64,000 nucleotides of DNA from Paracoccaceae bacterium (GTDB lineage Bacteria > Pseudomonadota > Alphaproteobacteria > Rhodobacterales > Rhodobacteraceae): contig REBU01000075.1 in NCBI GenBank assembly GCA_007692585.1, positions 1 through 64,000 on the forward strand, written 5' to 3'. Positions 14,518 through 32,149 of this stretch are shown here, piece after piece. How positions within the stretch are numbered: position 1 is the first letter of the stretch; each line of letters begins with the position of its first letter. Below the pieces are notes generated by a model that worked only from the letters and a program-made list of their open reading frames with translations, made no database searches and had not been told where the DNA came from. The translations under genes were made by a program, and so were the position numbers.

Positions 14518-14619
14518 AGGCTGGATCCTTTGTGGAAAGGGTTCGCATCGGAATTGGGTGTCTGATGGCTGACAAAGCATTGCAGAGCTATCGTCTCCAA
14601 GTCTACGCAAGTCTGCAGA

Positions 14620-14629: not shown

Positions 14630-14649
14630 TCTGGTTTTATAATCAGACA

Positions 14650-14659
14650 TTGTAGACAA
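14650..14659. promoter_or_regulatory. Putative GntR operator, TTGTAGACAA
   Basis: One mismatch to TTGTATACAA, upstream of the leftward amidase/small-protein pair. The 486-base divergent region is AT-rich around 14780-14810; apart from these sites no gene or RNA was recognised in it. Confidence 0.5.
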
Positions 14660-14932
14660 AACATTTTTCCTAATCTGCCCCGGAGATGGCATCCTTGCCT
14701 AAAAAAACTGCGGGCAGAAAAGGGGCTTGCTGCAAGGGGCCTGCGTCAGGGCATGTGCGTTGCTGGGCCGGAAAGCCATATAATAAATAAATAACAGATA
14801 TTTATGGATCGCGGAGGATCGCCCTCAAGGCGGTAGGCTGCGCCAGCTATGCAGATTGGACTGAAACCGGCAATTTCCGGATCTGTTGCCTTCGGCCTTG
14901 ACGAATCGAATATCTGACCGCAGCAATCCTAA

Positions 14933-14942
14933 TTGTACACAA
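14933..14942. promoter_or_regulatory. Putative GntR operator, TTGTACACAA
   Basis: One mismatch to TTGTATACAA, about 62 bases before the rightward small AtzG-like gene and its two amidases. Confidence 0.5.
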
Positions 14943-15003
14943 AATGGAGCGCGGCATTTTCGTTGCGCTCGACCAAAATCAACTTCCAGAAAGGAAGCTG
15001 CTC

Positions 15004-15198
15004 ATGTCTGACTCAGCACCGAGTGATCTTGTTCGCGTGACTGCGCTGCTCGAGGTCGCCGAATTCAGCCCGACTCCTGAACAAAAAGCGGAAATCCTCG
15101 ATGCCTATCCGCATGTGCGCGAGATGCTCGCGCGCCTGAAGCGTGACTATGGGTTCAGCGATGAGCCTGCGCATGTATTCACCCCGCTCAAATTCTGA
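15004..15198 (+). CDS. AtzG/GatC-like small amidase partner (DUF4089-like)
   Basis: A 64-residue protein whose ATG at 15004 is preceded by AAGGAAG at a good distance; the frame is open for 20 more codons upstream without a ribosome binding site. The sequence is two predicted helices (LVRVTALLEVAEF and VREMLARLKRDYGF) plus a tail EPAHVFTPLKF, as in AtzG-type partners. It lies 18 bases before an amidase gene with a near-identical ribosome binding site, so the two are probably made in equal amounts. The order is small gene then amidase, as in atzG-atzE, whereas the other pair in this cluster has the reverse order. Confidence 0.72.
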   Translation: MSDSAPSDLVRVTALLEVAEFSPTPEQKAEILDAYPHVREMLARLKRDYGFSDEPAHVFTPLKF

Positions 15199-15216
15199 TC
15201 GCGAAAGGAAGCCCTG

Positions 15217-16629: not shown

Positions 16630-16780
16630 GCGGCGCGCGCCGACACCCGGTGCAAAACGATCTGCGCCGCTGCCGTTCAAAGGGGGGGCCGGTCGGCAAG
16701 CCGCGCTCGTCTGACTGCCAAAGCCACGACCAAAGGCACCACGTCTTTCCGCAAAGCTTTCAAAAACCAAGGAGAAGAAG

Positions 16781-18282: not shown

Positions 18283-19143
18283 TCATGCGGCCTGGCCTTG
18301 TTGACTATTGCCCTGCAGCCTGAGGATTGCGCGCGCCTGCTGCCATGTGGCCACCGGGCGTTCCTGGCGGTCGCATATCTCGACCACGCGGCGCACCAGC
18401 GCGGCATTGGACGGTGCCAGACGGTCACGATCCAGCCGCACATTGTCTTCTAGCCCTGTGCGTGCATGACCACCAGCAGCCACGGCCCATTGGTTCAGCG
18501 TGGCCTGCTGTGCGCCGATCCCGGCCGCACACCAGGGCGCATCCGCCCCGAACAGGCGTTGCACAGTGCGGATGTAGAAATCGAACACCTCACGATCGAC
18601 AGGCATGGCGTTCTTCACTCCCATGACGAATTGCACATAAGGGGTTTGTGCAATCTGGCCCGCCTGCCACATCTGATGGGCTTTGAGGATATGCGAAAGA
18701 TCAAATGCCTCGATCTCCGGTTTCACATCATGGGCCAGCATTTCCGCTGCCAGCCAATCGACCAGATCGGGAGGGTTGTCATAGACGCGGGTCGGGAAGT
18801 TGTTCGAGCCGACCGAGAGCGAGGCCATATCGGGCTGTAGCCGCAGCATCGCGCCGCGCGCCTGCCCTGCGCCAGAGCGGCCACCGGTCGAGAACTGGAT
18901 GATCATGCCGGGGCAGTGCTTTTCCAGCCCGTTCTTCAGCGCGGCGAATTTCTCGGGATCGGATGATGGCGTCTGATCGTCATTGCGCACATGGGCATGG
19001 ACGATGCTCGCGCCTGCCTCGAACGCCTCATGCGTGGACTCAATCTGTTCCGACACTGTGATCGGCACGGCGGGATTGTTGGCCTTGGTGGGCAACGACC
19101 CGGTGATCGCCACGCAGATGATACAAGGATTTGTCATGCTCAT
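18283..19143 (-). CDS. BKACE-family beta-keto acid cleavage enzyme (DUF849)
   Basis: A 286-residue TIM-barrel zinc enzyme. Metal ligands are visible as H49 and H51 (SIVHAHVRND) and E232 (GGHARTGLEDN); the conserved NPAVPITVSEQ segment is at 23-33. Family members condense a beta-keto acid with acetyl-CoA to give acetoacetate and a new acyl-CoA. The usual Glu of the N-terminal ICGAE motif is replaced by a TGSLPTK stretch, a common subgroup variant. The ATG overlaps the stop of the hydrolase gene by ATGA. Beside a catechol pathway, 3-oxoadipate is a reasonable substrate, giving succinyl-CoA and acetoacetate; this is inference. Confidence 0.88.
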   Translation of the reverse strand: MSMTNPCIICVAITGSLPTKANNPAVPITVSEQIESTHEAFEAGASIVHAHVRNDDQTPSSDPEKFAALKNGLEKHCPGMIIQFSTGGRSGAGQARGAMLRLQPDMASLSVGSNNFPTRVYDNPPDLVDWLAAEMLAHDVKPEIEAFDLSHILKAHQMWQAGQIAQTPYVQFVMGVKNAMPVDREVFDFYIRTVQRLFGADAPWCAAGIGAQQATLNQWAVAAGGHARTGLEDNVRLDRDRLAPSNAALVRRVVEICDRQERPVATWQQARAILRLQGNSQQGQAA

Positions 19144-19997
19144 GCCGCTTTGCTTTTGCGCGCGGGCATCTGCGCCAGCGCGTCGAGGAAGAAAGGCCGG
19201 AAGCCTTCAGGATGCTCGCTCATCGGGAAATGGCCCAACTCGTCCATGACCGTCAGCGTCGCACCGTGAATGGCATCGGCGGTGCGCTTTGCGTCCTCGG
19301 GGGTGCAGGTCAGATCGTAAGCGCCCACGATCAGATGCACCGGCGTTTGGCCCGTGTCGATCTGGCCAAGACGGCCGATCAGGCTGTCATCGCGGGTGTA
19401 AAAGCTCAGATCGCCGCGAAACACGCCCGGCCCGGTTTGCATGAACATCCAGAGGGTGTTCCAGCGCTCGGCTTCGGGCGCGAAGGGCGAAATATTGGCC
19501 GAAACGAGCGCCGCGCCCATCTCTCCGCCATGTGCATCGGGGCGGTGGAACCAGTCGATATCATACCAGGCAGGCTGGAAATCAGATGCTTCAATCGCGA
19601 TGAAGCCGCTGAAACGCGCGCCATGCAAAGCCGCGAGTTGCAGTGCAATACGCCCGCCCATGGAACAGCCTGCCAGAACCGGGCGGTCGAGGCCCAGCGC
19701 ATCGACCACGGCCAGTACAGTCTCGATATAGGAGCCGGTCGTCAGCAGGTATTCTTCGGTCTGGAAGCCTTCAGGCGGTAGGGATTTCCCGTGCCAGGGC
19801 ATGTCGAACGCAATCAAACGGTTCTGCGCCGTGATCTCGGCATCATTCATCAGGTGCCGCCATTGCCGTGTATCCGCGCCTGCGGTGTGCAGGCACAGGA
19901 TCGGGCGGCCCTGACCTGCGCTCTCAAAATAAATCCGCCGGGGCGCACCTGCGACCGTGACGGTTACATATTGCCCGATGATCGGCTCGATGCTCAT
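19140..19997 (-). CDS. Alpha/beta hydrolase, possible 3-oxoadipate enol-lactonase
   Basis: A 285-residue alpha/beta-hydrolase-fold protein. The oxyanion region is LCLHTAGAD (34-42), the nucleophile elbow GCSMGG puts Ser at 112, the acid is probably the Asp in VGAYDLT (near 234) and the base His lies in DELGHFP (near 262). It is the middle gene of a three-gene operon with ATGA-type overlaps at both ends, between the SCP2-like protein and BKACE. Since a lactone must be opened between muconate and 3-oxoadipate, a PcaD-like role is the simplest idea. The sequence does not match PcaD closely enough to be sure, and C-C bond or ester hydrolases share these motifs. Confidence 0.75.
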   Translation of the reverse strand: MSIEPIIGQYVTVTVAGAPRRIYFESAGQGRPILCLHTAGADTRQWRHLMNDAEITAQNRLIAFDMPWHGKSLPPEGFQTEEYLLTTGSYIETVLAVVDALGLDRPVLAGCSMGGRIALQLAALHGARFSGFIAIEASDFQPAWYDIDWFHRPDAHGGEMGAALVSANISPFAPEAERWNTLWMFMQTGPGVFRGDLSFYTRDDSLIGRLGQIDTGQTPVHLIVGAYDLTCTPEDAKRTADAIHGATLTVMDELGHFPMSEHPEGFRPFFLDALAQMPARKSKAA

Positions 19998-20386
19998 GCT
20001 GCCCCCCCTTCTGCGCGTGCCAGCGCCATCACTTCCTTGAAAAACCGCAGGTTCTTGACGAGGCAAAGGATGTCACCGTCAATCCGCCCGTGCCCGATCT
20101 TCACCAGTCCGAAAATGTCGTGAAAGCCGGGGGCAGGGCGCGACTGCCAGAACTGGCGCAGCGCGTCGGCATCCGTGCGCAGCGCAAAGCGCCAAGGCGT
20201 CTTGCGGCTGGGGCCTTCGGCAATCGCGACCAGATGGCCCTTGTCAAAGGTCAGATAGACCTCTTGACCCTCAACCTCGATCAGCACGGTTTCGGAGAAC
20301 AGCCGCCCCAGTCGCAGCAGATGCGGGCGGTCCTCCAGTTGCGATTGCAGCGCGCGGAATGTCTCGATCACGGTTAACCCTCCCAT
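19994..20386 (-). CDS. Small SCP2-like protein of unknown function
   Basis: A 130-residue protein; the start at 20386 is chosen because upstream frame residues are basic and unlike any family and because the product then ends in an ATGA overlap with the hydrolase gene. The pattern of a beta-rich first half (ETVLIEVEGQEVYLTFDKG) and a RFALRTDADALRQFWQSRPA segment, then GHGRIDGDILCLVKNLRFFKEVM, resembles sterol-carrier-protein-2-like domains that bind hydrophobic ligands. No catalytic motif is evident. As the first gene of the BKACE operon it may bind a pathway intermediate or act with the hydrolase. It is not a CatC muconolactone isomerase by sequence. Confidence 0.6.
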   Translation of the reverse strand: MGGLTVIETFRALQSQLEDRPHLLRLGRLFSETVLIEVEGQEVYLTFDKGHLVAIAEGPSRKTPWRFALRTDADALRQFWQSRPAPGFHDIFGLVKIGHGRIDGDILCLVKNLRFFKEVMALARAEGGAA

Positions 20387-20440
20387 GAATACTCTTGCGC
20401 CTTGGTGGCATGAACGAACGGCGCTGCGCCATGCCTGCGC

Positions 20441-20458
20441 GGGTATGGAGCGATACCC
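20441..20458. promoter_or_regulatory. Putative LysR operator, GGGTAT-N6-ATACCC
   Basis: Perfect dyad with 6-base arms and a 6-base spacer, 55 bases before the SCP2-like gene and about 150 before the dioxygenase gene. The same layout recurs at 20486-20503 and before catB at 32132-32149. The LysR gene at 21574 is the natural candidate regulator. Confidence 0.55.
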
Positions 20459-20485
20459 GGAGCGCCCGCGCCTTGCGCGCGTCCC

Positions 20486-20503
20486 AGGTATCACCCGATA
20501 CCG
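20486..20503. promoter_or_regulatory. Putative LysR operator, AGGTAT-N6-ATACCG
   Basis: Second copy of the GGTAT-N6-ATACC dyad (5-base perfect arms), 45 bases centre to centre from the first and about 104 bases before the dioxygenase ATG. Two sites in one divergent promoter region fit LysR-type recognition and activation sites. Confidence 0.5.
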
Positions 20504-20606
20504 CCGCAGGCATTGGTTTGGGGGCCAGCGTAAAGGACAACAGCACAGCGCCGGATGAGCAGGCTTGTCCGGACCGACACACACCCACAACCTTGAGGAG
20601 GAGATC

Positions 20607-21482
20607 ATGGGAACTGTCACTCTGGAGAACATCACCGATGTGGTGGTCGCGAGCCTTGGCAAGCATGGACAGACCACAGACCGCCAGCGCGAGATCATGA
20701 CCTCGCTGGTCAAGCATCTGCACGGTTTCTGCAAGGATGTGAAATTGCAGCATGGCGAGTTTCTGGCTGGTTGCGATTACCTGAAGCGCGCAGGCCAGAC
20801 CTGCGACGAGAACCGCCAGGAATTCATCCTGCTGGGCGATATCCTGGGCGTGGAAGTGCTGGTCGATATGCTGACCAATGTCGTCGATGGGAACGAGAGC
20901 GAATCGACGGTGCTGGGGCCGTTCTACCGTGAAAACCCGCCTGTGCTGCCCAAAGGCGCATCCACGATCCTCAAGCATTACGACAATGAGGAAACGGTTT
21001 ATTATGAGGGCTGTATCCGCGACGCATCGGGCCGTGGTCTGGCCGGTGTCACGCTCGATGTCTGGGAAGATGCGCCTAACGGGGTCTACGAGAACCTCGA
21101 CCCCGACCAGCCCGAATACAACCTGCGCGGCCGGTTCGAAACGGATGAAAACGGCCATTACGCTTTTGTCGCGGTGCGCCCTGTGCCCTATCCGATCCCT
21201 GATAACGAGACAGCGGGCGAGTTGTTGCGCTTCATGGGCCACCACCCGAACCGTCCCGGCCACATGCATTTCATCATCTCGAAGGCCGGGTATCGTCCGC
21301 TGATCAGCCAGATCTATGATGCCGATAGCGACTGGCTGCATGATGACAGCGTGTTTGCCGTCAAGGACAGCCTGATCGGCAAGTTCCATCCGGCCCCGGA
21401 AGGCATGGGCACGGATCTGCACTTCACATTCGATTTCACGCTGAAAGCCGAGGCCGCTGAAAAGGCCGTCGCCGCCGAGTGA
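20607..21482 (+). CDS. Intradiol ring-cleavage dioxygenase (catechol/hydroxyquinol 1,2-dioxygenase)
   Basis: A 291-residue non-haem Fe(III) enzyme. Probable iron ligands are Y161 (APNGVYENL), Y195 (PVPYPIP), H219 and H221 (RPGHMHF), with spacing close to catechol 1,2-dioxygenase of Acinetobacter. The N-terminal helical domain (1-100) forms the dimer linker. The conserved C-terminal segment HDDSVFAVKDSLI is closer to the hydroxyquinol/chlorocatechol branch, but the adjacent benABCD and catB point to catechol as substrate, giving cis,cis-muconate. A strong GAGGAGGAGATC precedes the ATG at 20607. It is divergent from the BKACE operon and shares its operator region; a terminator follows. Confidence 0.9.
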   Translation: MGTVTLENITDVVVASLGKHGQTTDRQREIMTSLVKHLHGFCKDVKLQHGEFLAGCDYLKRAGQTCDENRQEFILLGDILGVEVLVDMLTNVVDGNESESTVLGPFYRENPPVLPKGASTILKHYDNEETVYYEGCIRDASGRGLAGVTLDVWEDAPNGVYENLDPDQPEYNLRGRFETDENGHYAFVAVRPVPYPIPDNETAGELLRFMGHHPNRPGHMHFIISKAGYRPLISQIYDADSDWLHDDSVFAVKDSLIGKFHPAPEGMGTDLHFTFDFTLKAEAAEKAVAAE

Positions 21483-21573: not shown

Positions 21574-22464
21574 ATGAATTTCAGGCAGTTGACCTATTTC
21601 ATCGCGGTCGCCGAAGAGCTGCATTTCGGGCGGGCCGCCGAGCGTCTGGACATGGCGCAGCCGCCCCTCAGCCGTCAGATCAAGCAGTTGGAGGATGAGC
21701 TGGGCGCGGTGCTGTTCAACCGGGGCCGGAGTGCGATCACGCTGACACAGGCGGGCCAGCGTCTGCTGGAGCGCGGGCGGTCGATCCTGCGGCAGATGGA
21801 GGATGCGAAACTCGAAGTGCGCAGGCTGGGACAAGGGGCCGAAGGGCGGCTGCGCGTCGGCTTCGTGGGGTCTGCCACTTTCGGCATTCTGCCTAATATC
21901 GTGAAGTCCTTCCGCGCGCATTACCCCGAGGTCAATCTAAGTCTGATGCCGATGAACAATGCCCAGCTTCACCGTGCGCTGGTCGCGCGTGAGATTGATG
22001 TGGCCTTTGCCCGGCCAGCCCTGCAGGACAGCGAATTTCTGACCCGCGAATTGCTGGAAGAAAAGCTGATCCTTGCGCTGCCCGATGGGATCGACACGGG
22101 ATCGCGCACTGTGGCCAAGCTGGAACGCTTGCAGACGCATCACCTGATCCTCTATCCCGAATTTCCCCGCCCCAGCTATGCCGATATGGTGCTCAAAGCC
22201 TGCGAGGATGCGGGCTTCACAGTGCCCTTGCGGATCTGGTGCATGGATTTGCAGACTGCAATCAGCCTCGTGTCGATCGGCGAAGGGGTCTGTATTGTTC
22301 CGGAATCGGTGGCGACCGCCAAGCGCAACGGGGTCAAGTTCCTGAAGATCGAGCCAGAAATCGCGCGCACGTCCCTATCGGTCAACACACGGCTGGATGA
22401 TCAGTCGGTGCATGTGAGCAATTTCATCCGAATTGCCCAGCAGGTTGCAAAAAAGCGGTTCTGA
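21574..22464 (+). CDS. LysR-family regulator (CatR/BenM-like)
   Basis: A 296-residue LysR-type transcription factor. Residues 1-60 form the winged helix with the EELHFGRAAERLDMAQPPLSRQIKQLE pattern split over residues 15-41. Residues 90-296 are the effector domain, which usually senses an aromatic or its ring-cleavage product such as muconate. The opening MNFRQLTYFIAVAEELHFGR is typical of the CatR/BenM/CatM group. GGGGGAG precedes the ATG. The gene lies between the dioxygenase gene and the end of the ben operon and probably controls both through the GGGTAT-N6-ATACCC dyads. Confidence 0.9.
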   Translation: MNFRQLTYFIAVAEELHFGRAAERLDMAQPPLSRQIKQLEDELGAVLFNRGRSAITLTQAGQRLLERGRSILRQMEDAKLEVRRLGQGAEGRLRVGFVGSATFGILPNIVKSFRAHYPEVNLSLMPMNNAQLHRALVAREIDVAFARPALQDSEFLTRELLEEKLILALPDGIDTGSRTVAKLERLQTHHLILYPEFPRPSYADMVLKACEDAGFTVPLRIWCMDLQTAISLVSIGEGVCIVPESVATAKRNGVKFLKIEPEIARTSLSVNTRLDDQSVHVSNFIRIAQQVAKKRF

Positions 22465-22494: not shown

Positions 22495-23196
22495 TCACAC
22501 ACCCAGCCAACGATGCTGCGCATCTTCATCCGCGCGAATGTCCTGCGCAGAGCCCGTCCAGACGATCTGCCCTTTCGAGACAATCACCACGTCATCAGCC
22601 AGTGATGTGGCAAAGCCGAAATTCTGCTCGACGATGATCATGGGCAATCCTGCGTTGCGCAACTCCTGCAGCTTGGCATGGATCAGCTTGACGATGATCG
22701 GCGCGAGCCCCTCGGTCGGTTCATCCAGGATCAGAAGGCGCGGGTTCATCACCAGCGCGCGGGCAATGGCCAGCATCTGCTGTTCACCGCCCGACAGCTC
22801 CATCCCGCCATTGTCCATCCGCTCGCCCAGACGCGGGAAGAGATCAAGCACTCGTTCCATGGTCCAGCCCCCATCGGCGCAGGGGAACCGCCACGCGGCC
22901 AGTTCAAGGTTTTCGCGCACGGTCAGTGAGGGGAAAATATCGCGCGTCTCTGGCACATAGGCGATACCCGCGCGGGCGATGTCATAGGGTTTGGCACCGG
23001 CGATCGGGCGGCCGTCAATGCGGATTTCACCCGATTGCGCGGGCAGCAGCCCCATGATGGTTTTCAGCGTCGTGGATTTACCCGCCCCGTTGCGCCCCAG
23101 AATGGCCAGCACGCGGCCCGGTTTCGCGCTGACCGACAGGCCATAAAGCACCTGCGTTTCGCCGTAACCGGCGTTTAGTCCTGTTACATCAAGCAT
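22495..23196 (-). CDS. Branched-chain-type ABC importer ATPase, LivF
   Basis: A 233-residue ATPase, shorter than its partner as is usual for LivF. Walker A GRNGAGKST at 34-42, signature LSGGEQQMLAIARAL near 135 and Walker B LLILDEPTEGLAP near 155. The ATG at 23196 overlaps the livG stop by eight bases. It is the last gene of the ben transcription unit. Importers of this class next to ben genes have been linked to uptake of benzoate-type aromatic acids; that function here is inference. Confidence 0.93.
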   Translation of the reverse strand: MLDVTGLNAGYGETQVLYGLSVSAKPGRVLAILGRNGAGKSTTLKTIMGLLPAQSGEIRIDGRPIAGAKPYDIARAGIAYVPETRDIFPSLTVRENLELAAWRFPCADGGWTMERVLDLFPRLGERMDNGGMELSGGEQQMLAIARALVMNPRLLILDEPTEGLAPIIVKLIHAKLQELRNAGLPMIIVEQNFGFATSLADDVVIVSKGQIVWTGSAQDIRADEDAQHRWLGV

Positions 23197-23932
23197 CTTC
23201 CCAAGCCCCCAGATAAATATCGCGCAAGAGTTTCGATCCACGGGCTTCTTCGGGCAGTCCGTCAAAGACGACCTCGCCATAATTCAGCACCGTGATCGTG
23301 TCGGCCACGGCGAAGGCCAGATCCATGTCATGCTCGATGATCAAGAGCGTCAGATCGCGCGGCAGACCGGCCAGCAGATCATGAAACCCCTTTGCCATTT
23401 CCGGACCTACCCCCGATGTGGGTTCGTCCATCAGCAGCACCAGCGGCTTGGTTGCCAGCGCCACACCAACTTCCAACTGACGCCGCACACCATAGCTGAT
23501 TTCAGAGACCTTGGCGTGAATATGCGGCATCAGGTTCACCTGTTCGGCGACCTCTTCCACGATCGCGCGCACCTTCGGTGATTGCAGCGCATCGCGCCAG
23601 AGTGTCATCGCCACGCCTGCATGGACCGAGGCGGCGAGTTCGAGGTTTTCCTCGACAGTCAGCCCGTCAAAGAGCGTGTTCTTCTGATAGCTGCGCGACA
23701 GACCACGCCGGGCGCGTCGTGCAACAGGCAGGTTGGTCACATCCTCGCCCGCAAGCAGGATCTGGCCCTTGTCAGGGGTGATCTCGCCCACAAGCTGGTT
23801 GAAAAGCGTGGTCTTTCCTGCGCCATTCGGCCCCAGGATCACCCGCCGCTCGCCCCGCTCCAGTTTGAGCGAGACATTGCGTGTGACATGGACGGCCCCG
23901 AAACTCTTGTCGAGATTGCGTGTCTCAAGCAT
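23189..23932 (-). CDS. Branched-chain-type ABC importer ATPase, LivG
   Basis: A 247-residue ATPase with Walker A GPNGAGKTT at 34-42, the LivG-type ARRGLSRSYQKNTLFDGLTV stretch near 75-94, the signature region SYGVRRQLEVGVALAT near 150, and Walker B LVLLMDEPTSGVGP near 168. The canonical LSGG signature is changed to ISYGVRRQ, a known variant in this subfamily. Start and stop overlap the neighbouring genes by eight bases each, so subunits are translationally coupled. Confidence 0.92.
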   Translation of the reverse strand: MLETRNLDKSFGAVHVTRNVSLKLERGERRVILGPNGAGKTTLFNQLVGEITPDKGQILLAGEDVTNLPVARRARRGLSRSYQKNTLFDGLTVEENLELAASVHAGVAMTLWRDALQSPKVRAIVEEVAEQVNLMPHIHAKVSEISYGVRRQLEVGVALATKPLVLLMDEPTSGVGPEMAKGFHDLLAGLPRDLTLLIIEHDMDLAFAVADTITVLNYGEVVFDGLPEEARGSKLLRDIYLGAWEDA

Positions 23933-24929
23933 CTTTCACAGCCTCCTTGGCATCATCACGAGTCTGGATGGATTGGATCAAACGGTCGGTGCGCGGACCA
24001 AAGCGGGCCTCGATGAAGCCGAAAATGCCATTGGCGCGGCTCATCACGACAGCGATCAGGACCAGCCCGACGATCAGGTGCCAATAGGTCGTGACATGGC
24101 TCAACTCATGCTTGAGCACGACAAAGGCAACTGCGCCGATCAGGGGCCCGACCAGCGTTCCAAGCCCGCCCAGGATCACGACCACGAGCGCCTCGCCGGA
24201 AACAGTCCAATGCAGCAGATTGGGCGAGATGAAAAGGATATGCTGGGCGGCCAGAACACCTGCCAGTCCCGCCATAGCGCCGGAAATGCCGAACACATCG
24301 GCCTTGACCCGCCAGACGGTCAGCCCCAATGCGCGCATCCGTTTCTCGTTATGCATGACGCCGGTCAGCGAACGGCCCAGACCCGAGCGCAGGGTCGCGA
24401 CCGCGATCAGATAGACCAGCCCCAGAAGTGCAAGGCAGAACAGCGCGAAGCTGCGGCCATCGTTCAGATCGACCCCGATGAAGGACAGATCGAAGCGGCC
24501 CGGCCCCACCATGCCGTCATCACCGCCAAAAAACGGGCGCTCGAAGAAATAGGAATAGCCCATCTGGCCGAAAGCGAGTGTGGCCATGATGAAGTAAATG
24601 CCATGACTGCGCGCACAGATCGCGCCGATCACCCAGCCAGTGCCTGCGGTGATGGCAATTGCGGCAGCAGCTGCCACCAGAGGGTCAAGACCCCCCTTGG
24701 TCGCCAGCGCCACAAAGGCATAGGCCCCCAGCCCCATCAGCGCGCCATGCGCGAGCGAGACCATGCCGCCAAAGCCTGCGACCAGATCGAGCGCCAGCAC
24801 AAGGATGGCAAGGATCAGGATTTCGGTCAGGATCTCCATGCCGAAATACCCGGCCGTGAAGGCGGTGAAAACCGCGCCCGAGAACAGGATGATCAGCGCA
24901 GCATAACGAAGCGGTGTATGTCGAAACAT
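23925..24929 (-). CDS. Branched-chain-type ABC permease, LivM
   Basis: A 334-residue permease with about nine to ten hydrophobic segments and the LivM hallmarks GGMVSLAHGALMGLGAYAF near residues 54-72, the EKRMRALGLTVWRVK loop near 195-210 and GGLGTLVGPLIGA near 270. It forms the channel with LivH. It follows livH by a five-base gap. Confidence 0.92.
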   Translation of the reverse strand: MFRHTPLRYAALIILFSGAVFTAFTAGYFGMEILTEILILAILVLALDLVAGFGGMVSLAHGALMGLGAYAFVALATKGGLDPLVAAAAAIAITAGTGWVIGAICARSHGIYFIMATLAFGQMGYSYFFERPFFGGDDGMVGPGRFDLSFIGVDLNDGRSFALFCLALLGLVYLIAVATLRSGLGRSLTGVMHNEKRMRALGLTVWRVKADVFGISGAMAGLAGVLAAQHILFISPNLLHWTVSGEALVVVILGGLGTLVGPLIGAVAFVVLKHELSHVTTYWHLIVGLVLIAVVMSRANGIFGFIEARFGPRTDRLIQSIQTRDDAKEAVKDA

Positions 24930-24934
24930 CGGAA

Positions 24935-25804
24935 TTATCCTTTCGCGGGAAACAGGCCCACGGGCTTCAAGAGCAGCACAGCAGCCAGAAGCGCGTAGAT
25001 CAGGATGGAGGCGATACCGGGCAGCAGGACGGCCCCGAAGGTCTGCACGAAGCCGTAGATGAGCGAGCCTGCAATCGCGCCCTTGAGCGAGCCAAGTCCA
25101 CCGATCACGATCACGATCAGCGTGGGGATCAGAATTTCCAGCCCCATGCCCGGGGTGACGCTCAGAAGCGGTGCGGCGACGGCTCCGGCAAGCCCTGCCA
25201 GCGCGCAGCCGACGCAGAAGACGATGAAGAACAGCCGTTCCACATTGATGCCCATGCAGGCGGCCATCGCGTCATTATCGACGCCTGCGCGGATCATCGC
25301 GCCGATTTGCGTGCGGCTCAGGATCAGGGCGAGTGCTGAGAAGATCGCTGCGCCAAGCGCGATGATGAACAGCCGGTAAGCGGGATAGCCTGTGCCGAAA
25401 ATCTCGACACGACCTGACAGGGCGGCGGGCGTGTTGATCGCCAGCGCCAGATCGCCCCAGATGATGCGCGTCAGATCCAGGAGCACGAAAATCAGCCCGA
25501 ACGTGACCAGCACCTGCGCCATCGGCCCGGATTTGCGCATGCGGCTGATCAGCCCACCATAGAGCGCCATGCCGACGATAGCGACGCCCAGAGGCGCGAC
25601 CAGAAGCGCGACCCAGAAACCTGCGGTGCTGGCGATGGTCGCCGCGAAATAGGCCCCCAGCGCATAAAGCGCGCCATGGGCGAGGTTCACGAAATGCATC
25701 AGGCCGAAGATGACAGTCAGTCCGATGGACAGAAGAAACAGAAGCATCGACAGTTGCAGCGCGTTGAGGGTCTGCAATGTCCAGAAGCCTAGGTCAGGTG
25801 TCAT
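24935..25804 (-). CDS. Branched-chain-type ABC permease, LivH
   Basis: A 289-residue permease with eight or so hydrophobic segments; FGLMHFVNLAHGALYALGAY (residues about 34-53) and GGLGSLKGAIAGSLIYG near 230-250 are typical of LivH. It is 60 bases downstream of the binding-protein gene on the minus strand. Confidence 0.92.
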   Translation of the reverse strand: MTPDLGFWTLQTLNALQLSMLLFLLSIGLTVIFGLMHFVNLAHGALYALGAYFAATIASTAGFWVALLVAPLGVAIVGMALYGGLISRMRKSGPMAQVLVTFGLIFVLLDLTRIIWGDLALAINTPAALSGRVEIFGTGYPAYRLFIIALGAAIFSALALILSRTQIGAMIRAGVDNDAMAACMGINVERLFFIVFCVGCALAGLAGAVAAPLLSVTPGMGLEILIPTLIVIVIGGLGSLKGAIAGSLIYGFVQTFGAVLLPGIASILIYALLAAVLLLKPVGLFPAKG

Positions 25805-25864
25805 TGGGCTCTCCTCCCCTGATGACCGGATGGGATGGGGCCGCAGGTCGCGGCCCCGATGGGT

Positions 25865-27049
25865 TCAGTTGGTGGCGGGGGCGGGCATGGCGCAGCCATT
25901 CACCGGGTCGGCCTCGGCAGGCAGCGTGGCGAGGATGTTTTGCGTCATTGCGCCAGTCTCGCCCGTGACCGTTTCATAGACAAAGATTGGCTGGACGATG
26001 TTGTTGGTCGCCGGGTCGATCGAGGTTGCGCCACGCGGCCCGTCGAAGCTGGTCATGCGCAGTGCATTGGCAAGGCTCGCGCGGTCCCTTGCTCCGGCGC
26101 GGATCGCATCGGTCAGCGCGCGAGCAGCATCATAGCCATGCACCCCATATTCCGACGGCAGGCGGCCAATACTGGCCTCGAATGCTTCGATGAAAGCCAC
26201 GTTTTCGGGGTTATCGGCTGTCGGCACATAATGCAGCGCCGTGATCACGCCGTTCGCGCTTTCGCCTTGAGCGTTGATATAAAGCTGCGAGGTCAGGAAG
26301 CCCGAGCCATAGAGCGGCATCGTCTCGGCCATGCCGAAACTGTCATACTGGTTGACGAAGGCAATCGCCTCACCACCCGCATAAAAGACATAGATCGCCT
26401 CTGCGCCCGAGGCGCGCGCCTGTGCCAGATAGGGACCGAAATCCTGCGTCTGCTGGAAGGGCGTCCAGCCTTGCCCCACGATCTCGCCCCCTGCGGCGGT
26501 GAAGGTCTCGGTGAAGCCACCGATCATCTGACGGCCAGCGGCATAATCCGCGCCCAAGGTATAGACGCGCGTGATCCCCTGCTCGGCCATCCAGCGCCCC
26601 ATGGGACGGTTGACCTGCCCGCTGGAGAAGGACAGCCGCGTGATATAGGGGCTGCAGCGCTCGCCTGTGGCTTCGTCATTGCCGGCATTGGCGACGATCA
26701 ACGGCACCTGTGCGCCATGGACGAAATCACGGATCGCACCCAGCACGCCCGAAGACACGATGCCGACCAGCACATCAGCGCGGTCCTGCATTACCAGCTT
26801 GCGCGCGCGGGCCAGCCCATTGGCGGGGTTCACTTCGGTATCTTCGCGGATGATGTTCAGATCAACGCCCAGATCATCGCCGAAATGCTCCAGCCCCAGT
26901 CGGAAACCGGCCTCGATTTCAGTGCCGAGCGCCGCATAGACGCCCGAGAACGGCAGAAGCAGGCCGATATTCAGCTTGTCCGCCAGCGCCGATTGCGCGC
27001 CAAGGATCGTGGCAAGCCCGGTCAGGGCCGCCGTCAGGGTCTTTTTCAT
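25865..27049 (-). CDS. ABC binding protein, branched-chain/aromatic acid type (LivK-like)
   Basis: A 394-residue periplasmic receptor. Signal peptide residues 1-23 (MKKTLTAALTGLATILGAQS, then ALA-DK). The mature N-terminus KLNIGLLLPFSGVYAALG is the standard type-I periplasmic receptor start. GGAGGAGGAAACCC precedes the ATG at 27049. Relatives bind amino acids, amides or aromatic acids. Its position right behind benD suggests it captures benzoate or a related aromatic acid. Confidence 0.9.
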   Translation of the reverse strand: MKKTLTAALTGLATILGAQSALADKLNIGLLLPFSGVYAALGTEIEAGFRLGLEHFGDDLGVDLNIIREDTEVNPANGLARARKLVMQDRADVLVGIVSSGVLGAIRDFVHGAQVPLIVANAGNDEATGERCSPYITRLSFSSGQVNRPMGRWMAEQGITRVYTLGADYAAGRQMIGGFTETFTAAGGEIVGQGWTPFQQTQDFGPYLAQARASGAEAIYVFYAGGEAIAFVNQYDSFGMAETMPLYGSGFLTSQLYINAQGESANGVITALHYVPTADNPENVAFIEAFEASIGRLPSEYGVHGYDAARALTDAIRAGARDRASLANALRMTSFDGPRGATSIDPATNNIVQPIFVYETVTGETGAMTQNILATLPAEADPVNGCAMPAPATN

Positions 27050-27092: not shown

Positions 27093-27872
27093 TCAGCCTT
27101 GATCGCCGCCACCAACCGGCAGAACCGAGCCGGTGATGTAGGATGCGTCATCGGACGCCAGAAACAGAATCGGTCGGGCCTGTTCTTCCAGCGTGCCATA
27201 GCGCTTCATGTGGCTGGACTGGATCGTCTGGGTGACGATCGTCTGATACCAGTCCTCGCGCTGTTCTTCCGCCGCATTAGGGTTGCGCGGCACCTTGCGG
27301 GGCGGGGCTTCGGTCCCGCCCGGCGCTGTGGCGACCACACGGATGCCACGTTCAGCCACTTCCCAGGCCAGGCTTGCCGTGAGTGCGTTCACACCACCCT
27401 TGGCGGCCGCATAGGGCGCACGGTTCAAGCCCCGCGTGGCGATGGAAGACACATTCACGATCACACCCTTTTGCGCCGGGAGCATGTGATCGAGCGCTGC
27501 GCGGCAGCAATAGAGCGTGGGCATCAGCGAGCGGCGGATTTCCGCGTCGATCTGTGGGGCGTCGTAATGTTCAAACGGTTTGGCCCAGATCGTGCCGCCG
27601 ACATTGTTCACCAGAATGTCGATCTGGCCCCATATCTCGACAGCCTTCGCCATCGCCTTCGCGCAGCCCGCCCAGGTTTCCAGATTGACCGAAATCGCAT
27701 GAGCCGCGCCGCCCGCTTTGTTGATGGCGCGGGCAACTTCCGCGCGGTGGGGCGAGCGGTCCACGATCAGAACGCGCGCCCCTTCGGCTGCCGCCCCTTC
27801 GGCGACCGCGCGGCCAATTCCTTGCGCGGCCCCGGTCACGACCATGACCTTGCCTGCGAACCGCGCGCTCAT
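27093..27872 (-). CDS. benD: Benzoate dihydrodiol dehydrogenase (BenD)
   Basis: A 259-residue short-chain dehydrogenase that oxidises and decarboxylates 1,6-dihydroxycyclohexa-2,4-diene-1-carboxylate to catechol with NAD+. NAD-binding TGAAQGIG at 13-20, catalytic S143, Y154 and K158 (RAPYAAAKGG). The stretch NVGGTIWAKPFEHY (90-103) followed by EIRRSLMPTLYCCRAAL is diagnostic of BenD/XylL rather than of general SDR enzymes. Its start overlaps the benC stop by ATGA. Confidence 0.95.
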   Translation of the reverse strand: MSARFAGKVMVVTGAAQGIGRAVAEGAAAEGARVLIVDRSPHRAEVARAINKAGGAAHAISVNLETWAGCAKAMAKAVEIWGQIDILVNNVGGTIWAKPFEHYDAPQIDAEIRRSLMPTLYCCRAALDHMLPAQKGVIVNVSSIATRGLNRAPYAAAKGGVNALTASLAWEVAERGIRVVATAPGGTEAPPRKVPRNPNAAEEQREDWYQTIVTQTIQSSHMKRYGTLEEQARPILFLASDDASYITGSVLPVGGGDQG

Positions 27873-28888
27873 GCGGCAGCGGCCTTCTCTTCGGTCGGGT
27901 TGAATTTCTCGAAATGGAAGCTGGCTGGGGTGACCCCAAGCTTTGCCATATGCGCACGCACTGCATCCACCATGGGGGGCGGGCCGCAGAGATAGACATC
28001 GGCCTGTCCGTTGCAGAGATCATCGATCCGCAGGTGATCCGTGACGAAGCCCTTGCGCGGGTGATCGTCCTCTGGCGCGGCCAGAATGGTGATCACGCGC
28101 AGCGTTGCGATGCGTTCTGCCAGGGCTTGCACGCGGTCCAGTTCCACCAGATCGGCCGCGCGGGTGACCGCATAATAGAGCGTGATCGGCTGATCCGTGC
28201 CCTGTTCCACCATTTGCTCCAGCATCGACAGGAAGGGCGCGAGCCCGGTGCCGCCAGCGAGCCAGACTTGCGGGCGGGTGATCGGGCGCAGGTAGAATGC
28301 CCCCATCGGCCCGGTCAGCGTGACCTGCTCGCCTGCCTGCGCCTCGGCCAAGTAGCTGCTCATCACGCCACCGGGCAGGTTGCGGATCAGGAAGCTGGCC
28401 TCCGTCGCACCGGGAGCCGAAGAAAAGGAGTAGGAGCGACGCTTGCCCGTGCCGGGGACCGAGACATTGACATATTGCCCCGGCAAGAACTGCATGGGCC
28501 GATCCAGCATCAGCCGCAGCGAGAACGAGGTTTCCGACAGCCGGTCTACCCCGGCCACGGTCGCGCTGATTTCCTCGGGCGCGGTCTTGCAGGCCGCAGA
28601 GGATGCCGGGATGCGGATCACGCAATCGCTTTGCGGCATCATCTGGCAAGTCAGGACGTAGCCCTCGGCGGCCTCATCCTCGGTCATGGCTTCGTCGAGG
28701 TAGAATTCCAGCTCGTATTCGCCTTTCTCGGCGAAGCATTTGCAGGTGCCACAGACCCCGTCGCGGCAATCCATGGGGATATTGATCTTCTGGCGAAAGG
28801 CGGCTTCCGTCACCTTCTCGTCATCGTCGCATTGAATGACGCGGGTCACGCCATCCTCGAAATTTAGGGCAACGCTATAGGTCGTCAT
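27869..28888 (-). CDS. benC: Benzoate 1,2-dioxygenase reductase (BenC)
   Basis: A 339-residue electron-transfer flavoprotein passing electrons from NADH to BenAB. Residues 1-90 are a plant-type [2Fe-2S] ferredoxin domain with C41, C46, C49 and C81. An FAD domain follows (PGQYVNVSVPGTGKRRSYSF near 137-156), then an NAD domain (WLAGGTGLAPFLSMLEQ near 210-226). Domain order and length are those of BenC. It lies between benB and benD. Confidence 0.95.
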   Translation of the reverse strand: MTTYSVALNFEDGVTRVIQCDDDEKVTEAAFRQKINIPMDCRDGVCGTCKCFAEKGEYELEFYLDEAMTEDEAAEGYVLTCQMMPQSDCVIRIPASSAACKTAPEEISATVAGVDRLSETSFSLRLMLDRPMQFLPGQYVNVSVPGTGKRRSYSFSSAPGATEASFLIRNLPGGVMSSYLAEAQAGEQVTLTGPMGAFYLRPITRPQVWLAGGTGLAPFLSMLEQMVEQGTDQPITLYYAVTRAADLVELDRVQALAERIATLRVITILAAPEDDHPRKGFVTDHLRIDDLCNGQADVYLCGPPPMVDAVRAHMAKLGVTPASFHFEKFNPTEEKAAAA

Positions 28889-28957: not shown

Positions 28958-29479
28958 TCAGATGTGGTAGACGTCGATCACATGGTGGATCTGATCATTC
29001 TTCAGGATCACCTTTTTCGAGGCGATCAGCGGTTTCTCCCCCCGCAGATCCAGTGTGTAGAAGGACGTGCCCCAATGCTGGTCCGTTGTCCCATAGCGAT
29101 AGGTCATCGTGACCCAGTTGAAGCGCAGTTCCACGACCCCGCCCTGCTGGCTCAGCACTTCGATATTCGACAGGTTGTGATTGGTGCGCGGCTCGGGCAG
29201 CGAGGTCGCCGAGGACCGATCCGTCTTGATACGGAACACGCGATCTTCGATCCCCGAACGGTCGGGGTAGTAGATCAGTGACATCTCGTTCAGCGGGTCT
29301 TCGGTCAGGCGATCCTCGTCATCCCAGGTGGGCATCCAGAAGGGGCAATCCTTGGCGTAGAAACCCAGCCATGTGTCCCAGTCGCGGTCATCCAGCGCGC
29401 GGGCCTCAGAATAGAGAAAGGCCGCGATCTCGGCATGGGTCAGGGTTTTGGCGGGGCGGTCAAGCGTGGTTGTGCTCAT
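28958..29479 (-). CDS. benB: Benzoate 1,2-dioxygenase small subunit (BenB)
   Basis: A 173-residue beta subunit of a ring-hydroxylating oxygenase with the SnoaL-like cone fold. Recognised by HAEIAAFLYSEARALDDRDW (near 15-34), the FYAKDCPFWMPTWDDED stretch and SIRTK-like FRIKTDRSS near 82. It has a structural role in the alpha3-beta3 complex. It is 12 bases after benA and 69 bases before benC. Confidence 0.94.
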   Translation of the reverse strand: MSTTTLDRPAKTLTHAEIAAFLYSEARALDDRDWDTWLGFYAKDCPFWMPTWDDEDRLTEDPLNEMSLIYYPDRSGIEDRVFRIKTDRSSATSLPEPRTNHNLSNIEVLSQQGGVVELRFNWVTMTYRYGTTDQHWGTSFYTLDLRGEKPLIASKKVILKNDQIHHVIDVYHI

Positions 29480-29491: not shown

Positions 29492-30880
29492 TTATTCAGC
29501 GGCGACTTGCGCATCAGGCGCGGTTTCGCGTTCCTTGGCGATGGCTTGGGCCATGCGCTCGGTCCATTGCTTGTGCTGGATCACGAACAGCCCTTCATCC
29601 TCGGTCCGTGCACCCGACAGGATCGGGTTGATCCCCAGCGCCTTCGCGTCCTCGTCCGGGCCTTCGATCCACTGGGTCGCCCCTCGGCAGATGTCATTCC
29701 AAGGCGCATGGGCCGCGCCGGCATAGCCGCGCTGGGTCGCGCGGAATTCTTCGGTGTCGTCGGGTGTGGCCATGCCCGAGGCGTTGAAGAAATCCTCATA
29801 CTGGCGGATGCGGCGGGTGCGGGCTTCCTGGGCTTCACCCTTGGGCGCGATGCAGTAGATCGTGACCTCGGTCTTATCCACGCTGACAGGCCGGAACACC
29901 CTGATCTGGCTGGAAAACTGGTCCATCAGGAACACGTTGGGATAGAGGCAGAGATTGCGCAGCACGCCCACCATCCATTCGGCCTTGGTCTGGCCATAAC
30001 GCTCGGTCCATTCGGCAAGGCGCGGATAGTTGGGGCGGTTGGTCGGATCAGACCACGCGGTCCAGAGCAGAAGATGACCATTCACATAGGAATGAAAGCC
30101 GCCGCGCTGCTTGGCCCATTTGGACGCATCGGTGGCCTTGATGTTGTCCTCTTTTCCGTCAGCCGTGCGATGTGCTGTCGTGGCCACATAGTTCCAATGC
30201 ACCGCCGAGACATGGTAGCCATCCGCGCCATTTTCGGCCTGCAGCTTCCAATTGCCGTCGAACGTATAGGTGGACGACCCGCGCAGCACTTCCATGCCTT
30301 CATCGGACTGGTCTACGATGATGTCGATCATCTTGCGCGCTTCGCCCAAGTAATCTTCCAGCGGCTGCACATCGGCATTGAGCGAGCCGAACAGGAAGCC
30401 GCGATAATTCTCGAACCGCGCCACGCGCCTCAGGTCGTGACTGCCATCCGTGTTGAACTGTTCAGGATAGCCCGCGCCATTGGGGTCTTTCACCTTCAAG
30501 AGCTTGCCCGTATTCGAAAAGGTCCAGCCGTGGAACGGGCAGGTAAAGGTTTTCTGGTTGCGCCGCTTGAACCGACACAGCATCGCGCCCCGGTGCGAGC
30601 AGGCATTGACCAGGGCGTGAAGCTGCTCTTCCTTGTCGCGGGTGATCACGACGGGTGTGCGGCCCATATGCAGGGTGAAATAATCGCCGGGGTTCGGGAT
30701 CTGGCTTTCATGGGCCATGTAGATCCAGTTGCCCTCGAAGATATGCTTCATCTCCAGCTCGAACAGCTCCTCGTCCGTGAACATGTCACGGCGCGCTCGG
30801 TAGATACCGTTTTCCGGGTCGTCCTGCACAATGCCGTCCAGTCGGCGTTCCAGCTCGTCAAGATTGGATTGGGTGAACAT
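29492..30880 (-). CDS. benA: Benzoate 1,2-dioxygenase large subunit (BenA)
   Basis: The 462-residue catalytic subunit. Rieske [2Fe-2S] ligands are C94, H96, C114 and H117 (NACSHRG and TCPFHGW). Mononuclear iron ligands are H223 and H228 ([12 protein letters not shown]), with D220 as the usual electron bridge. The product converts benzoate plus O2 and NADH to the cis-dihydrodiol. The ATG at 30880 is the family start; it follows catB by 28 bases, preceded by AGGAGGAAAGCC. Close relatives oxidise anthranilate or toluate, so benzoate is the likely rather than proven substrate. Confidence 0.95.
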
Positions 30881-30908: not shown

Positions 30909-32069
30909 TTATGCACCCGCGACAGCACGCAGGCTGCGGGTCTTGTCGCGGCGGTAGAAGTCGGTCTTGTCAGGGTCGAGCGCGACCCCAAGTCCTACGC
31001 CGTCAGGCACCACCACGCGAAAATCGCGATAGGTCAAAGGCGTGGTCAGAATGTCATCGGTCAGCAGAAGCGGGCCGAAGAATTCGGTCCCCCAGGCCAG
31101 ATGCTCGACCGTCGAGAACAGCTGAAGTGCCGCCGCCGTGCCGACAGCGCTTTCCAGCATCGTGCCCCCATAAAGCGCAATCCCGGCGGCCTGCCCGATC
31201 GAGATTACTTCCCGCCCCCGCATCAACCCGCCCGATTGCGCGATCTTCACCGCAAACACATCGGCGGCTTTTTTGCTGGCCACAGCCAGCGCATCTTCCG
31301 GCCCGCCAAGGGCTTCATCGGCCATGACGGCGATCTCATAGCTGCGGGTGAGTTCCGCCATCGCATTTAGGTAGCGCGCCTGCACAGGCTGCTCGACCAG
31401 CTCGCAGCCGACATCCTGCAAGCCCTTCAGGCCCCAGCGGGCGTCAGCCAGCGTCCATGCTTGATTGACGTCCACACGGATGCTGGCCTTGTCGCCCAAG
31501 GCCGCCTTGATCCGGCCAACATGGGCCACGTCCTCGCGCACGGCGCGCTTGCCGATCTTCAGCTTGAAGATGTTGTGACGGTGCGATGCGATCATCGCCT
31601 GCGCTTCGGCAATATCCGTGTCGGAATTGCCCGAAGCCAGCGTCCAGGCCACAGGCATATCCTGCGCGATCTGGCCGCCGAAAAGCTGCGCGACCGACGC
31701 ACCAAGGCGCTTGCCAAGGGCATCCCAGAGCGCCATTTCAACAGCGGATTTCGCAATCCGGTTGCCGCGCGCATGGCGGTCCATCAAGGCGATGGCAGTG
31801 GTGATCTGGTCGGCTTCCTGCCCGATCAAGGCAGGTGCCAGATAGGTCTCGATGGCCGAGACGATGCTCTCCGGGCTTTCCGGGCAATAGCTCAGGCCGC
31901 CGATGGTCGTGCCCTCGCCAATCCCCTCGGACCCGTCCGAGCAGCGCAAGCGGACGATCACAGGCGATTGCGTGCGCATCGTCGTCATCGACAGGACATG
32001 CCCGCGAATGGTGGGGATATCCAGAATGAAGGCGTCTATCTGGTCGATCTTGGGCACGTCTGTCACCAT
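30909..32069 (-). CDS. catB: Muconate cycloisomerase (CatB)
   Basis: A 386-residue enolase-superfamily enzyme that lactonises cis,cis-muconate to muconolactone. Catalytic K169 and K171 (FKLKIGK), metal ligands D200 (VDVNQAW), E226 (ELVEQPV) and D251 (MADEAL), and K275 all fall at a constant offset from the Pseudomonas enzyme. The start at 32069 has only a weak AAGAAAAA before it. It is the first gene of the ben transcription unit, so catechol breakdown and benzoate oxidation are co-expressed. No catC is present in the window. Confidence 0.93.
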
Positions 32070-32131: not shown

Positions 32132-32149
32132 GGGTCTTGGGTGATACCC
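32132..32149. promoter_or_regulatory. Putative LysR operator, GGGTCT-N6-ATACCC
   Basis: Same arm length, spacer and right arm as the site at 20441 with one left-arm mismatch. It is 63 bases before the catB ATG, the start of the ben operon. Confidence 0.5.

What the first reader, a model, noticed from the sequence alone, without database searches (positions are those of the whole stretch)
18283..21482. Possible CoA-transferase-free ending of the beta-ketoadipate pathway using BKACE
A ring-cleavage dioxygenase is divergent from a tightly overlapping operon of an SCP2-like protein, an alpha/beta hydrolase and a BKACE enzyme, next to benABCD and catB. Normally 3-oxoadipate needs PcaIJ (succinyl-CoA transferase) and PcaF (thiolase). 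BKACE enzymes join a beta-keto acid and acetyl-CoA to give acetoacetate and an acyl-CoA, so 3-oxoadipate would give succinyl-CoA and acetoacetate in one step. Neither pcaIJ nor pcaF is in the window. The hydrolase would fit as enol-lactonase.
Basis: inference. Interest (0 to 1): 0.76.

Follow-up and report, generated by a model that had tools for sequence, protein, structure and literature searches.

The report
Benzoate pathway with swapped middle genes
These marine-type bacteria probably finish benzoate breakdown with an already recognised shortcut enzyme, and an unstudied pair of genes sits where a textbook enzyme of the same pathway is missing.

Summary
The BKACE (18283-19143) passes the curated model for 3-oxoadipate:acetyl-CoA acetyltransferase (494.6 bits, cut-off 350). 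The draft genome has no PcaF over cut-off and one CoA-transferase pair, of ScoAB type. So a BKACE ending is likely, but not new: it was suggested for the catechol regulon of Ralstonia eutropha H16 in 2019 and for Methylobacterium in 2022 and 2025, and the enzyme passes its cut-off in 101 of 149 family genomes. Nor is it CoA-transferase-free: acetoacetate must be recovered, and scoA follows kce directly in 23 of 48 relatives.

The fresher point is upstream. No muconolactone isomerase (CatC) was found in the genome. Instead an SCP2-fold protein plus a non-PcaD alpha/beta hydrolase (19140-20371) lie beside a hydroxyquinol-type dioxygenase. The two are together in 80 of 80 related stretches, none with CatC, and share a conserved palindrome with catB. 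Sulfitobacter D7 carries this cluster and grows on benzoate; its authors found every catechol-branch gene except CatC. The pair is the best candidate for the missing step; this is unproven.

The parts
18283..19143 (-). BKACE (kce), 3-oxoadipate:acetyl-CoA acetyltransferase type
   Evidence: NF053568 494.6 bits, cut-off 350; 3fa5 and 3chv are the closest solved relatives; residues in the HxH and GLEDN motifs and the STGG loop are kept against Kce 2y7d
19140..19997 (-). HYD: alpha/beta hydrolase, not a PcaD equivalog; candidate for the muconolactone/enol-lactone step
   Evidence: PF00561 62.6 bits; TIGR02427 only 72.2 bits, cut-off 255.85; 24-26% identical to the genome's own PcaD; Ser112, Asp228 and His256 invariant in 11 and in 29 aligned rows
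19994..20371 (-). ORF3: small SCP2-fold protein, constant partner of HYD; GTG start at 20371
   Evidence: AlphaFold pLDDT 92.3; Foldseek 6h6p E 1.3e-5, 2cx7 TM 0.75; directly upstream of HYD in 80 of 80 loci
20442..20457 (.). palindrome GGTAT-N6-ATACC, likely LysR-type operator
   Evidence: GTAT-N6-ATAC in 67 of 68 divergent regions of relatives
20487..20502 (.). second palindrome GGTAT-N6-ATACC
20607..21482 (+). intradiol dioxygenase of hydroxyquinol 1,2-dioxygenase type, probably acting as catechol 1,2-dioxygenase
   Evidence: 199 bits to 8r2x and 197 to 3n9t against 116 to the best catechol dioxygenase; the only PF00775 match in the genome besides the two PcaGH subunits
21577..22464 (+). 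LysR-type regulator (AlsR, CatM and BenM models among the better matches)
   Evidence: none of the 25 models shown reaches its cut-off
22495..27049 (-). branched-chain-amino-acid-type ABC transporter genes, presumed aromatic acid uptake (upper limit approximate)
   Evidence: for both ATPases and one permease (UrtB-like); the second permease and the binding protein are named from position and from relatives, since one search gave them no family at 1e-30
27093..27872 (-). benD
   Evidence: NF040811 431.8 bits, cut-off 380
27869..28888 (-). benC
   Evidence: NF040810 508.8 bits, cut-off 430
28958..29479 (-). benB
   Evidence: TIGR03232 251.8 bits, cut-off 225.55
29492..30841 (-). benA (start approximate)
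   Evidence: TIGR03229 796.8 bits, cut-off 780.95
30909..32069 (-). catB, muconate cycloisomerase
   Evidence: TIGR02534 492 bits, cut-off 334.95; start read from the sequence printed
32133..32148 (.). third copy of the palindrome (one mismatch), about 64 bases upstream of catB
   Evidence: at most one mismatch in 20 of 20 catB upstream regions of relatives against 1.05 expected

Best explanation
This is the lower half of a ben-cat benzoate pathway in a Roseinatronobacter/Natronohydrobacter-like bacterium. Shown by sequence: BenABCD, CatB, a BKACE of 3-oxoadipate type and a shared palindrome are present; CatC, PcaF and a canonical CatA were not found in the 98%-complete draft genome. Inferred steps: benzoate goes to catechol (BenABCD); the hydroxyquinol-type dioxygenase opens catechol to cis,cis-muconate; CatB makes muconolactone; the SCP2-fold protein ORF3 and the hydrolase HYD act together as an isomerase-lactonase that gives 3-oxoadipate in place of CatC, and probably of CatD; BKACE and acetyl-CoA turn 3-oxoadipate into succinyl-CoA and acetoacetate; ScoAB and a thiolase recover the acetoacetate. 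The net sum equals the PcaIJ/PcaF route: 3-oxoadipate + CoA gives succinate + acetyl-CoA. The confidence given is for the pathway frame with the BKACE ending. Step by step: BKACE acts on 3-oxoadipate 0.85; the dioxygenase serves as CatA 0.8; ORF3-HYD fills the CatC gap 0.5.
For: BKACE: NF053568 494.6 against 350. Genome: PcaF best 394 bits against 597, and that gene is BktB-type (PRK09051 640 against 565); one scoAB; no CatC at E 0.1; only three PF00775 matches, PcaG, PcaH and this dioxygenase. Among 80 named loci (stretches of up to 20 kb), ORF3 sits directly upstream of HYD in 80; dioxygenase in 76; CatB or Ben genes in 69; CatC in 0. Of 12 distinct CatB loci over cut-off in the family and class samples, 9 lie within 11 kb of ORF3-HYD with no CatC match nearby, and 3 lie beside CatC without ORF3. 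ORF3-linked CatBs form two clades, and the three CatC-linked CatBs group with only one of them. The palindrome GTAT-N6-ATAC is in 67 of 68 ORF3/dioxygenase divergent regions, 124 copies in 17.2 kb against 12 in 1.18 Mb elsewhere, and upstream of catB with at most one mismatch in 20 of 20. Sulfitobacter D7 has this cluster on a plasmid and grows on benzoate as sole carbon source; its authors found all catechol-branch genes except CatC (PMC9873259, passages).
Against: ORF3-HYD pairs are not confined to cat clusters: all 19 class-level stretches fetched (for 19 of the 26 matches outside this genome) have the pair without the dioxygenase and with at most one weak CatB-like hit (24%), and pairs occur in Rhodococcus and Peribacillus. 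So the pair is a general module and may be only a lactonase. SCP2 folds are known as binding proteins, not isomerases (recalled), and no CatC is among the 50 best PDB matches. One of two CatC-type clusters also has its own PcaD-like hydrolase, so HYD could simply be CatD. Two family genomes have a close ORF3 but no CatB over cut-off: G113, where kce and scoAB are fragments, and G005. BKACE follows HYD in only 49 of 75 loci with room for it. In Sulfitobacter D7 no kce or scoA lies in the 31-kb stretch, and its authors list PcaIJ and PcaF, so benzoate growth there says nothing for BKACE. No activity was measured.
Confidence: 0.6

Rival explanations
1. HYD is only a diverged enol-lactonase (CatD) with ORF3 as its partner subunit; muconolactone isomerisation is done by something else, for example a bifunctional CatB, an unrecognised isomerase elsewhere, or spontaneously.
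For: HYD has weak but real PcaD similarity (72 bits). The pair occurs in other contexts without CatB. The SCP2 fold suggests binding rather than catalysis.
Against: The genome already has a PcaD. The pair goes with absence of CatC next to two separate CatB clades, so a bifunctional CatB would have to exist in both.
Confidence: 0.35
2. The dioxygenase is a true hydroxyquinol 1,2-dioxygenase and the trio serves a hydroxyquinol pathway that merely lies beside ben-cat.
For: Closest solved relatives are hydroxyquinol dioxygenases, and one relative is annotated so.
Against: CatB or Ben genes in 69 of 80 loci; the palindrome is shared with catB; no other non-Pca intradiol dioxygenase in the genome; Sulfitobacter D7 grows on benzoate and carries this dioxygenase in its benzoate cluster. 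Maleylacetate reductase was not searched for.
Confidence: 0.12
3. The BKACE acts on another beta-keto acid and 3-oxoadipate is cleaved by ScoAB plus BktB in the PcaIJ/PcaF roles.
For: ScoAB and PcaIJ share one family model (TIGR02428/TIGR02429), and a BktB-type thiolase is present. BKACE enzymes are promiscuous (PMC4922564 passages).
Against: It is far above the 3-oxoadipate equivalog cut-off. Members lie in a pca operon, in window-type cat clusters and near CatC-type cat clusters, whose common product is 3-oxoadipate.
Confidence: 0.12

Closest known systems
BKACE ending of the beta-ketoadipate pathway (NF053568; COG3246 in the catechol regulon of Ralstonia eutropha H16, PMC6449761; kce of Methylobacterium, PMC8963497 and PMC12379598)
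   Same: Same enzyme family (here over the curated cut-off) and same proposed reaction; Ralstonia even shares the catechol branch
   Different: Here it is linked to a CatC-less cluster with ORF3-HYD and, in relatives, often to scoAB
Canonical catBCA-ben cluster of the same family (G023, G130; L125, L124)
   Same: BenA, BenD-type SDR, CatB, LysR-type regulator and a nearby kce
   Different: Those have CatC and a TIGR02439-type CatA (440.6 and 449 bits, cut-off 392); the window has neither and has ORF3-HYD
Benzoate cluster of Sulfitobacter sp. D7 plasmid p5SUD7 (PMC9873259)
   Same: CatB-BenABCD-ABC transporter-LysR-dioxygenase-ORF3-HYD in this order; growth on benzoate shown; absence of CatC noted by the authors
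   Different: No kce or scoA in the stretch; the passages read do not mention ORF3
PcaD/CatD 3-oxoadipate enol-lactonase
   Same: alpha/beta hydrolase fold family; plausible chemistry
   Different: HYD is far below the PcaD cut-off and came with ORF3 in every locus examined
SCP2 sterol-carrier fold (UbiJ-SCP2, Thermus SCP2)
   Same: Predicted fold
   Different: No Pfam match; constant neighbour of a hydrolase; no lipid role suggested by context

Membership tests
3-oxoadipate:acetyl-CoA acetyltransferase (NF053568) | score over the curated equivalog cut-off | tested here: met
   494.6 against 350 bits
3-oxoadipate:acetyl-CoA acetyltransferase (NF053568) | metal-site and active-site motifs of Kce (HxH, STGG, PExE, R.GxEDN; their roles are recalled) | tested here: met
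   aligned with 2y7d
3-oxoadipate:acetyl-CoA acetyltransferase (NF053568) | activity on 3-oxoadipate | not testable with these tools
   needs an enzyme assay
PcaIJ/PcaF ending | PcaF equivalog in the genome | tested here: not met
   best 394 bits, cut-off 597; draft genome, 98% complete; the same model also passes its cut-off in 0 of 14 control genomes
PcaIJ/PcaF ending | dedicated PcaIJ pair besides ScoAB | tested here: inconclusive
   one TIGR02429 match in the genome, with a TIGR02428 partner; the models do not separate PcaIJ from ScoAB, and TIGR02428 was not searched genome-wide
CatA catechol 1,2-dioxygenase (TIGR02439) | score over cut-off | tested here: not met
   144.5 against 392 bits
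hydroxyquinol 1,2-dioxygenase | closest solved relatives and substrate | tested here: inconclusive
   closest in PDB, but context points to catechol; substrate not testable
CatC muconolactone isomerase (PF02426) | a match anywhere in the genome | tested here: not met
   0 matches at E 0.1; the same model matches in 9 of 149 family genomes, over cut-off in 8
PcaD/CatD enol-lactonase (TIGR02427) | HYD over cut-off | tested here: not met
   72.2 against 255.85 bits; own PcaD at 272.6
SCP2 fold | predicted structure matches SCP2 structures | tested here: met
SCP2 fold | Pfam SCP2 family match | tested here: not met
   no family at E 10 for the three close members; two distant members gave only unrelated weak matches

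The most novel reading that the evidence does not exclude
ORF3 and HYD are a previously unrecognised two-subunit enzyme that converts muconolactone to 3-oxoadipate, an unrelated replacement for CatC (and CatD) in many Rhodobacterales and some neighbours, drawn from a wider unannotated family of SCP2-fold plus hydrolase pairs that reaches Actinomycetota and Bacillota. With the hydroxyquinol-type CatA and the BKACE ending, several textbook enzymes of the catechol branch are then replaced at once.
Probability: 0.45. Interest if true: 0.68.

Novelty: new variant of a known kind. Interest (0 to 1): 0.5.

Why it matters
The beta-ketoadipate pathway is a textbook route for lignin, algal and pollutant aromatics. 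The BKACE enzyme looks general in this family (101 of 149 genomes over cut-off) and is no oddity. A published gap, benzoate growth without CatC in Sulfitobacter D7, gets a concrete gene pair to test. If right, a pair that plasmid records list as 'hypothetical protein' plus 'alpha/beta hydrolase' gains a first function, and muconate biotechnology gains an alternative enzyme.

Tried and rejected
ORF3 as a diverged CatC: rejected as homology, since the predicted fold is SCP2 and no CatC appears among the 50 PDB matches listed. HYD structure: the model has pLDDT 66.5, too weak to interpret, so it was not searched. PDB profile search with ORF3: no match. Phage records: no match. A hydroxyquinol pathway: disfavoured, but maleylacetate reductase was not searched for. 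All own-genome absences rest on the genome search in a draft of 116 contigs; PcaJ was not searched genome-wide.

Literature: paper searches listed no paper that I recognised as linking ORF3-HYD to muconolactone. Several listings were capped (20 of 55, 20 of 95, 20 of 27, 10 of 416), the library holds only CC-licensed papers, and most listed papers were seen as title and start of abstract. PMC4922564, PMC6365646, PMC6449761, PMC8963497, PMC9873259, PMC12379598 and PMC12421898 were seen as found passages only. Bastard 2014 and Buchan 2004 are not held and are known to me through citations in other papers and recall.

Limits of counts: the 80 loci are the best 80 of 218 and are close relatives (HYD 81-94% identical), so co-occurrence there is partly shared descent; 'no CatC' there means no tblastn match (E 1e-4, four CatC queries) in stretches of up to 20 kb, not in whole genomes. 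The palindrome was first seen in the window and then tested on relatives, which are also related to each other. Exact copies upstream of catB occur in only 2 of 20; 20 of 20 allows one mismatch and was set against single-base shuffles. Of 30 loci with CatB, only the 20 with more than 60% identity and at least 200 bases upstream were used. Class-level CatB was counted only at E 1e-90 or better. The CatB tree is rooted at the midpoint and its outgroup rows have long branches. For folding, ORF3 used the window plus 46 of 77 usable rows and HYD the window plus 28.
Full report
What is there. The four genes are real and lie as described. BKACE, hydrolase (HYD) and the small protein (ORF3) overlap by four bases at both junctions on the minus strand; the dioxygenase is divergent. 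A LysR-type regulator follows the dioxygenase, then a branched-chain-type ABC transporter, benDCBA and catB. The nearest named relatives of HYD are Natronohydrobacter and Roseinatronobacter, so the window comes from that group of Rhodobacterales or close to it.

The BKACE ending. The protein scores 494.6 bits against a cut-off of 350 for NCBIfam's 3-oxoadipate:acetyl-CoA acetyltransferase, and residues at the Kce active-site motifs are kept (roles recalled). In the 98%-complete draft genome PcaF is not found over cut-off (best 394 against 597 bits; that gene is a BktB-type thiolase), and there is one ScoA-family gene, next to a ScoB-family gene.

It is known. A 2019 study of betaproteobacterial regulons suggested that the COG3246 protein in the catechol regulon of Ralstonia eutropha H16 might cleave beta-ketoadipate (PMC6449761, passages). 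The same was raised for Methylobacterium pca operons (PMC8963497, passages), and an engineered Methylobacterium extorquens grows on protocatechuate with transferred pcaHGB, pcaL and kce (PMC12379598, passages). In the window's own family 101 of 149 sampled genomes pass the BKACE cut-off, against 10 for CatB. The window's genome has a second copy, cut by two contig ends, between pcaG and a PcaB-type gene that is below its model cut-offs. The two CatC-type cat clusters fetched from the family also have a BKACE some kilobases away.

It is not CoA-transferase-free. BKACE yields acetoacetate; its recovery needs ScoAB (or a ligase) and a thiolase, and the net sum with ScoAB equals that of PcaIJ plus PcaF (arithmetic from known reactions). 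ScoA lies directly downstream of BKACE in 23 of the 48 BKACE loci with at least 400 bases of room. In the nearest relative, L133, kce-scoAB is contiguous and its scoAB is 89.8% identical in DNA to the window genome's only scoAB, which lies on another contig. Marinibacterium anthonyi has benA through to kce, scoAB and a YdcO gene in one stretch, with CatB outside the part shown.

The missing isomerase. CatC (PF02426) is not found in the genome at E 0.1. The dioxygenase is closer to hydroxyquinol than to catechol dioxygenases (199 against 116 bits) and fails the CatA models, but it is the only PF00775 match in the genome besides PcaGH. HYD fails the PcaD model (72 against 255.85 bits), while a true PcaD exists elsewhere. 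ORF3 has no Pfam family and a confident SCP2 fold.

Comparative evidence. In 80 named loci found with HYD, ORF3 is directly upstream in 80, the dioxygenase is present in 76, LysR in 77, CatB or Ben genes in 69, BKACE in 55, ScoA in 29, ScoB in 18 and CatC in 0 (thresholds in the scripts; many stretches are cut by contig ends). In 149 family genomes ORF3 matches in 14, 11 of them closely, CatC in 9 and CatB over cut-off in 10. Nine CatB loci lie within 11 kb of ORF3-HYD, and eight of those nine genomes have no CatC match; the ninth, G130, also has a separate catBC locus. Two CatB loci (G130, G023) are beside CatC with no ORF3 or HYD match in 18 kb. A class sample of 337 genomes added one more CatB, beside CatC and in a genome without an ORF3 match. 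The ORF3-linked CatBs fall into two clades of 11 and 22 rows, and the three CatC-linked CatBs join only the 22-row clade (support 99/96 for the 25; midpoint root). So the pair goes with the lack of CatC on two CatB backgrounds.

Regulation. The palindrome GGTAT-N6-ATACC occurs three times in the 64-kb window with at most one mismatch (0.37 expected; 1 of 100 shuffles had three or more): twice between ORF3 and the dioxygenase and once about 64 bases upstream of catB. GTAT-N6-ATAC is in 67 of 68 corresponding regions of relatives, 124 copies in 17.2 kb against 12 in 1.18 Mb elsewhere. Upstream of catB it is exact in 2 of 20 but present with at most one mismatch in 20 of 20 (1.05 expected). One LysR protein most likely controls both units; binding is inferred.

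Experimental anchor. Sulfitobacter D7 carries catB-benABCD-transporter-LysR-dioxygenase-ORF3-HYD in this order on a plasmid; ORF3 is 74% and HYD 83% identical to the window's. It grows on benzoate as sole carbon source, two Sulfitobacter strains lacking the genes do not, and its authors state that all catechol-branch genes were found except CatC (PMC9873259, passages). They also list PcaIJ and PcaF, and no kce or scoA lies in the 31-kb stretch, so for that strain the BKACE ending is not supported.

Against my reading. ORF3-HYD pairs occur outside cat clusters: in all 19 class-level stretches fetched, without the dioxygenase and with one weak CatB-like hit (24%), and in Agrobacterium, Martelella, Rhodococcus and Peribacillus. 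The pair is thus a general module, and in cat clusters HYD might be only an enol-lactonase. One of the two CatC-type clusters also has a PcaD-like hydrolase. Two family genomes have a close ORF3 and no CatB over cut-off (G005, G113); in G113 kce and scoAB are fragments. SCP2 proteins are not known as isomerases (recalled). I therefore give even odds that the pair fills the CatC step, and high odds only to the BKACE part, which is not new.

Verdict. Observation confirmed; interpretation partly supported; its central claim has already been proposed in print for other bacteria, and the enzyme is common in this family. The fresher result is a candidate, supported by genome comparison only, for the missing CatC step.

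Noticed in passing
G000 C86 end / C87 start (L011, L012, L013, L014): A second 3-oxoadipate-type BKACE, cut by two contig ends, lies between pcaG and a PcaB-type gene, with pcaD and pcaQ on C86 and a 4-hydroxybenzoate hydroxylase gene on C87.
   Followed up: yes
L001; L133 8503-9845: The genome's only scoAB lies on contig C98, apart from kce, while in the nearest relative (L133) a close copy directly follows kce; this suggests a recent rearrangement on one side.
   Followed up: partly
L244-L262, L121, L122, L264, L265: The ORF3-HYD pair is a widespread unannotated two-gene module, also in Actinomycetota and Bacillota; in Agrobacterium, Rhodococcus and Peribacillus it is followed by a succinate-semialdehyde dehydrogenase gene. 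Its general function is unknown.
   Followed up: partly
L118 (Phaeobacter inhibens P88 plasmid pP88_c): Two dioxygenase/ORF3/hydrolase sets lie close together on one plasmid, one dioxygenase annotated shorter, with a separate kce and no CatB annotated in the stretch.
   Followed up: no
window 13102-18115: Three amidase genes lie next to the BKACE cluster; the two that were compared have no match of 45% identity or more in the 80 relatives' stretches. The region 6155-12833 upstream of them was not scanned.
   Followed up: no
window 32240-33496: A D-amino acid dehydrogenase gene lies just upstream of catB on the same strand; of the 80 relatives' stretches only L171 showed it, but many stretches do not reach that far.
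   Followed up: no
L034 10703-11409 (G113): Fragments of kce, scoA and scoB remain downstream of an intact-looking ORF3-HYD pair, with no dioxygenase or CatB nearby: a cluster that seems to be decaying.
   Followed up: partly
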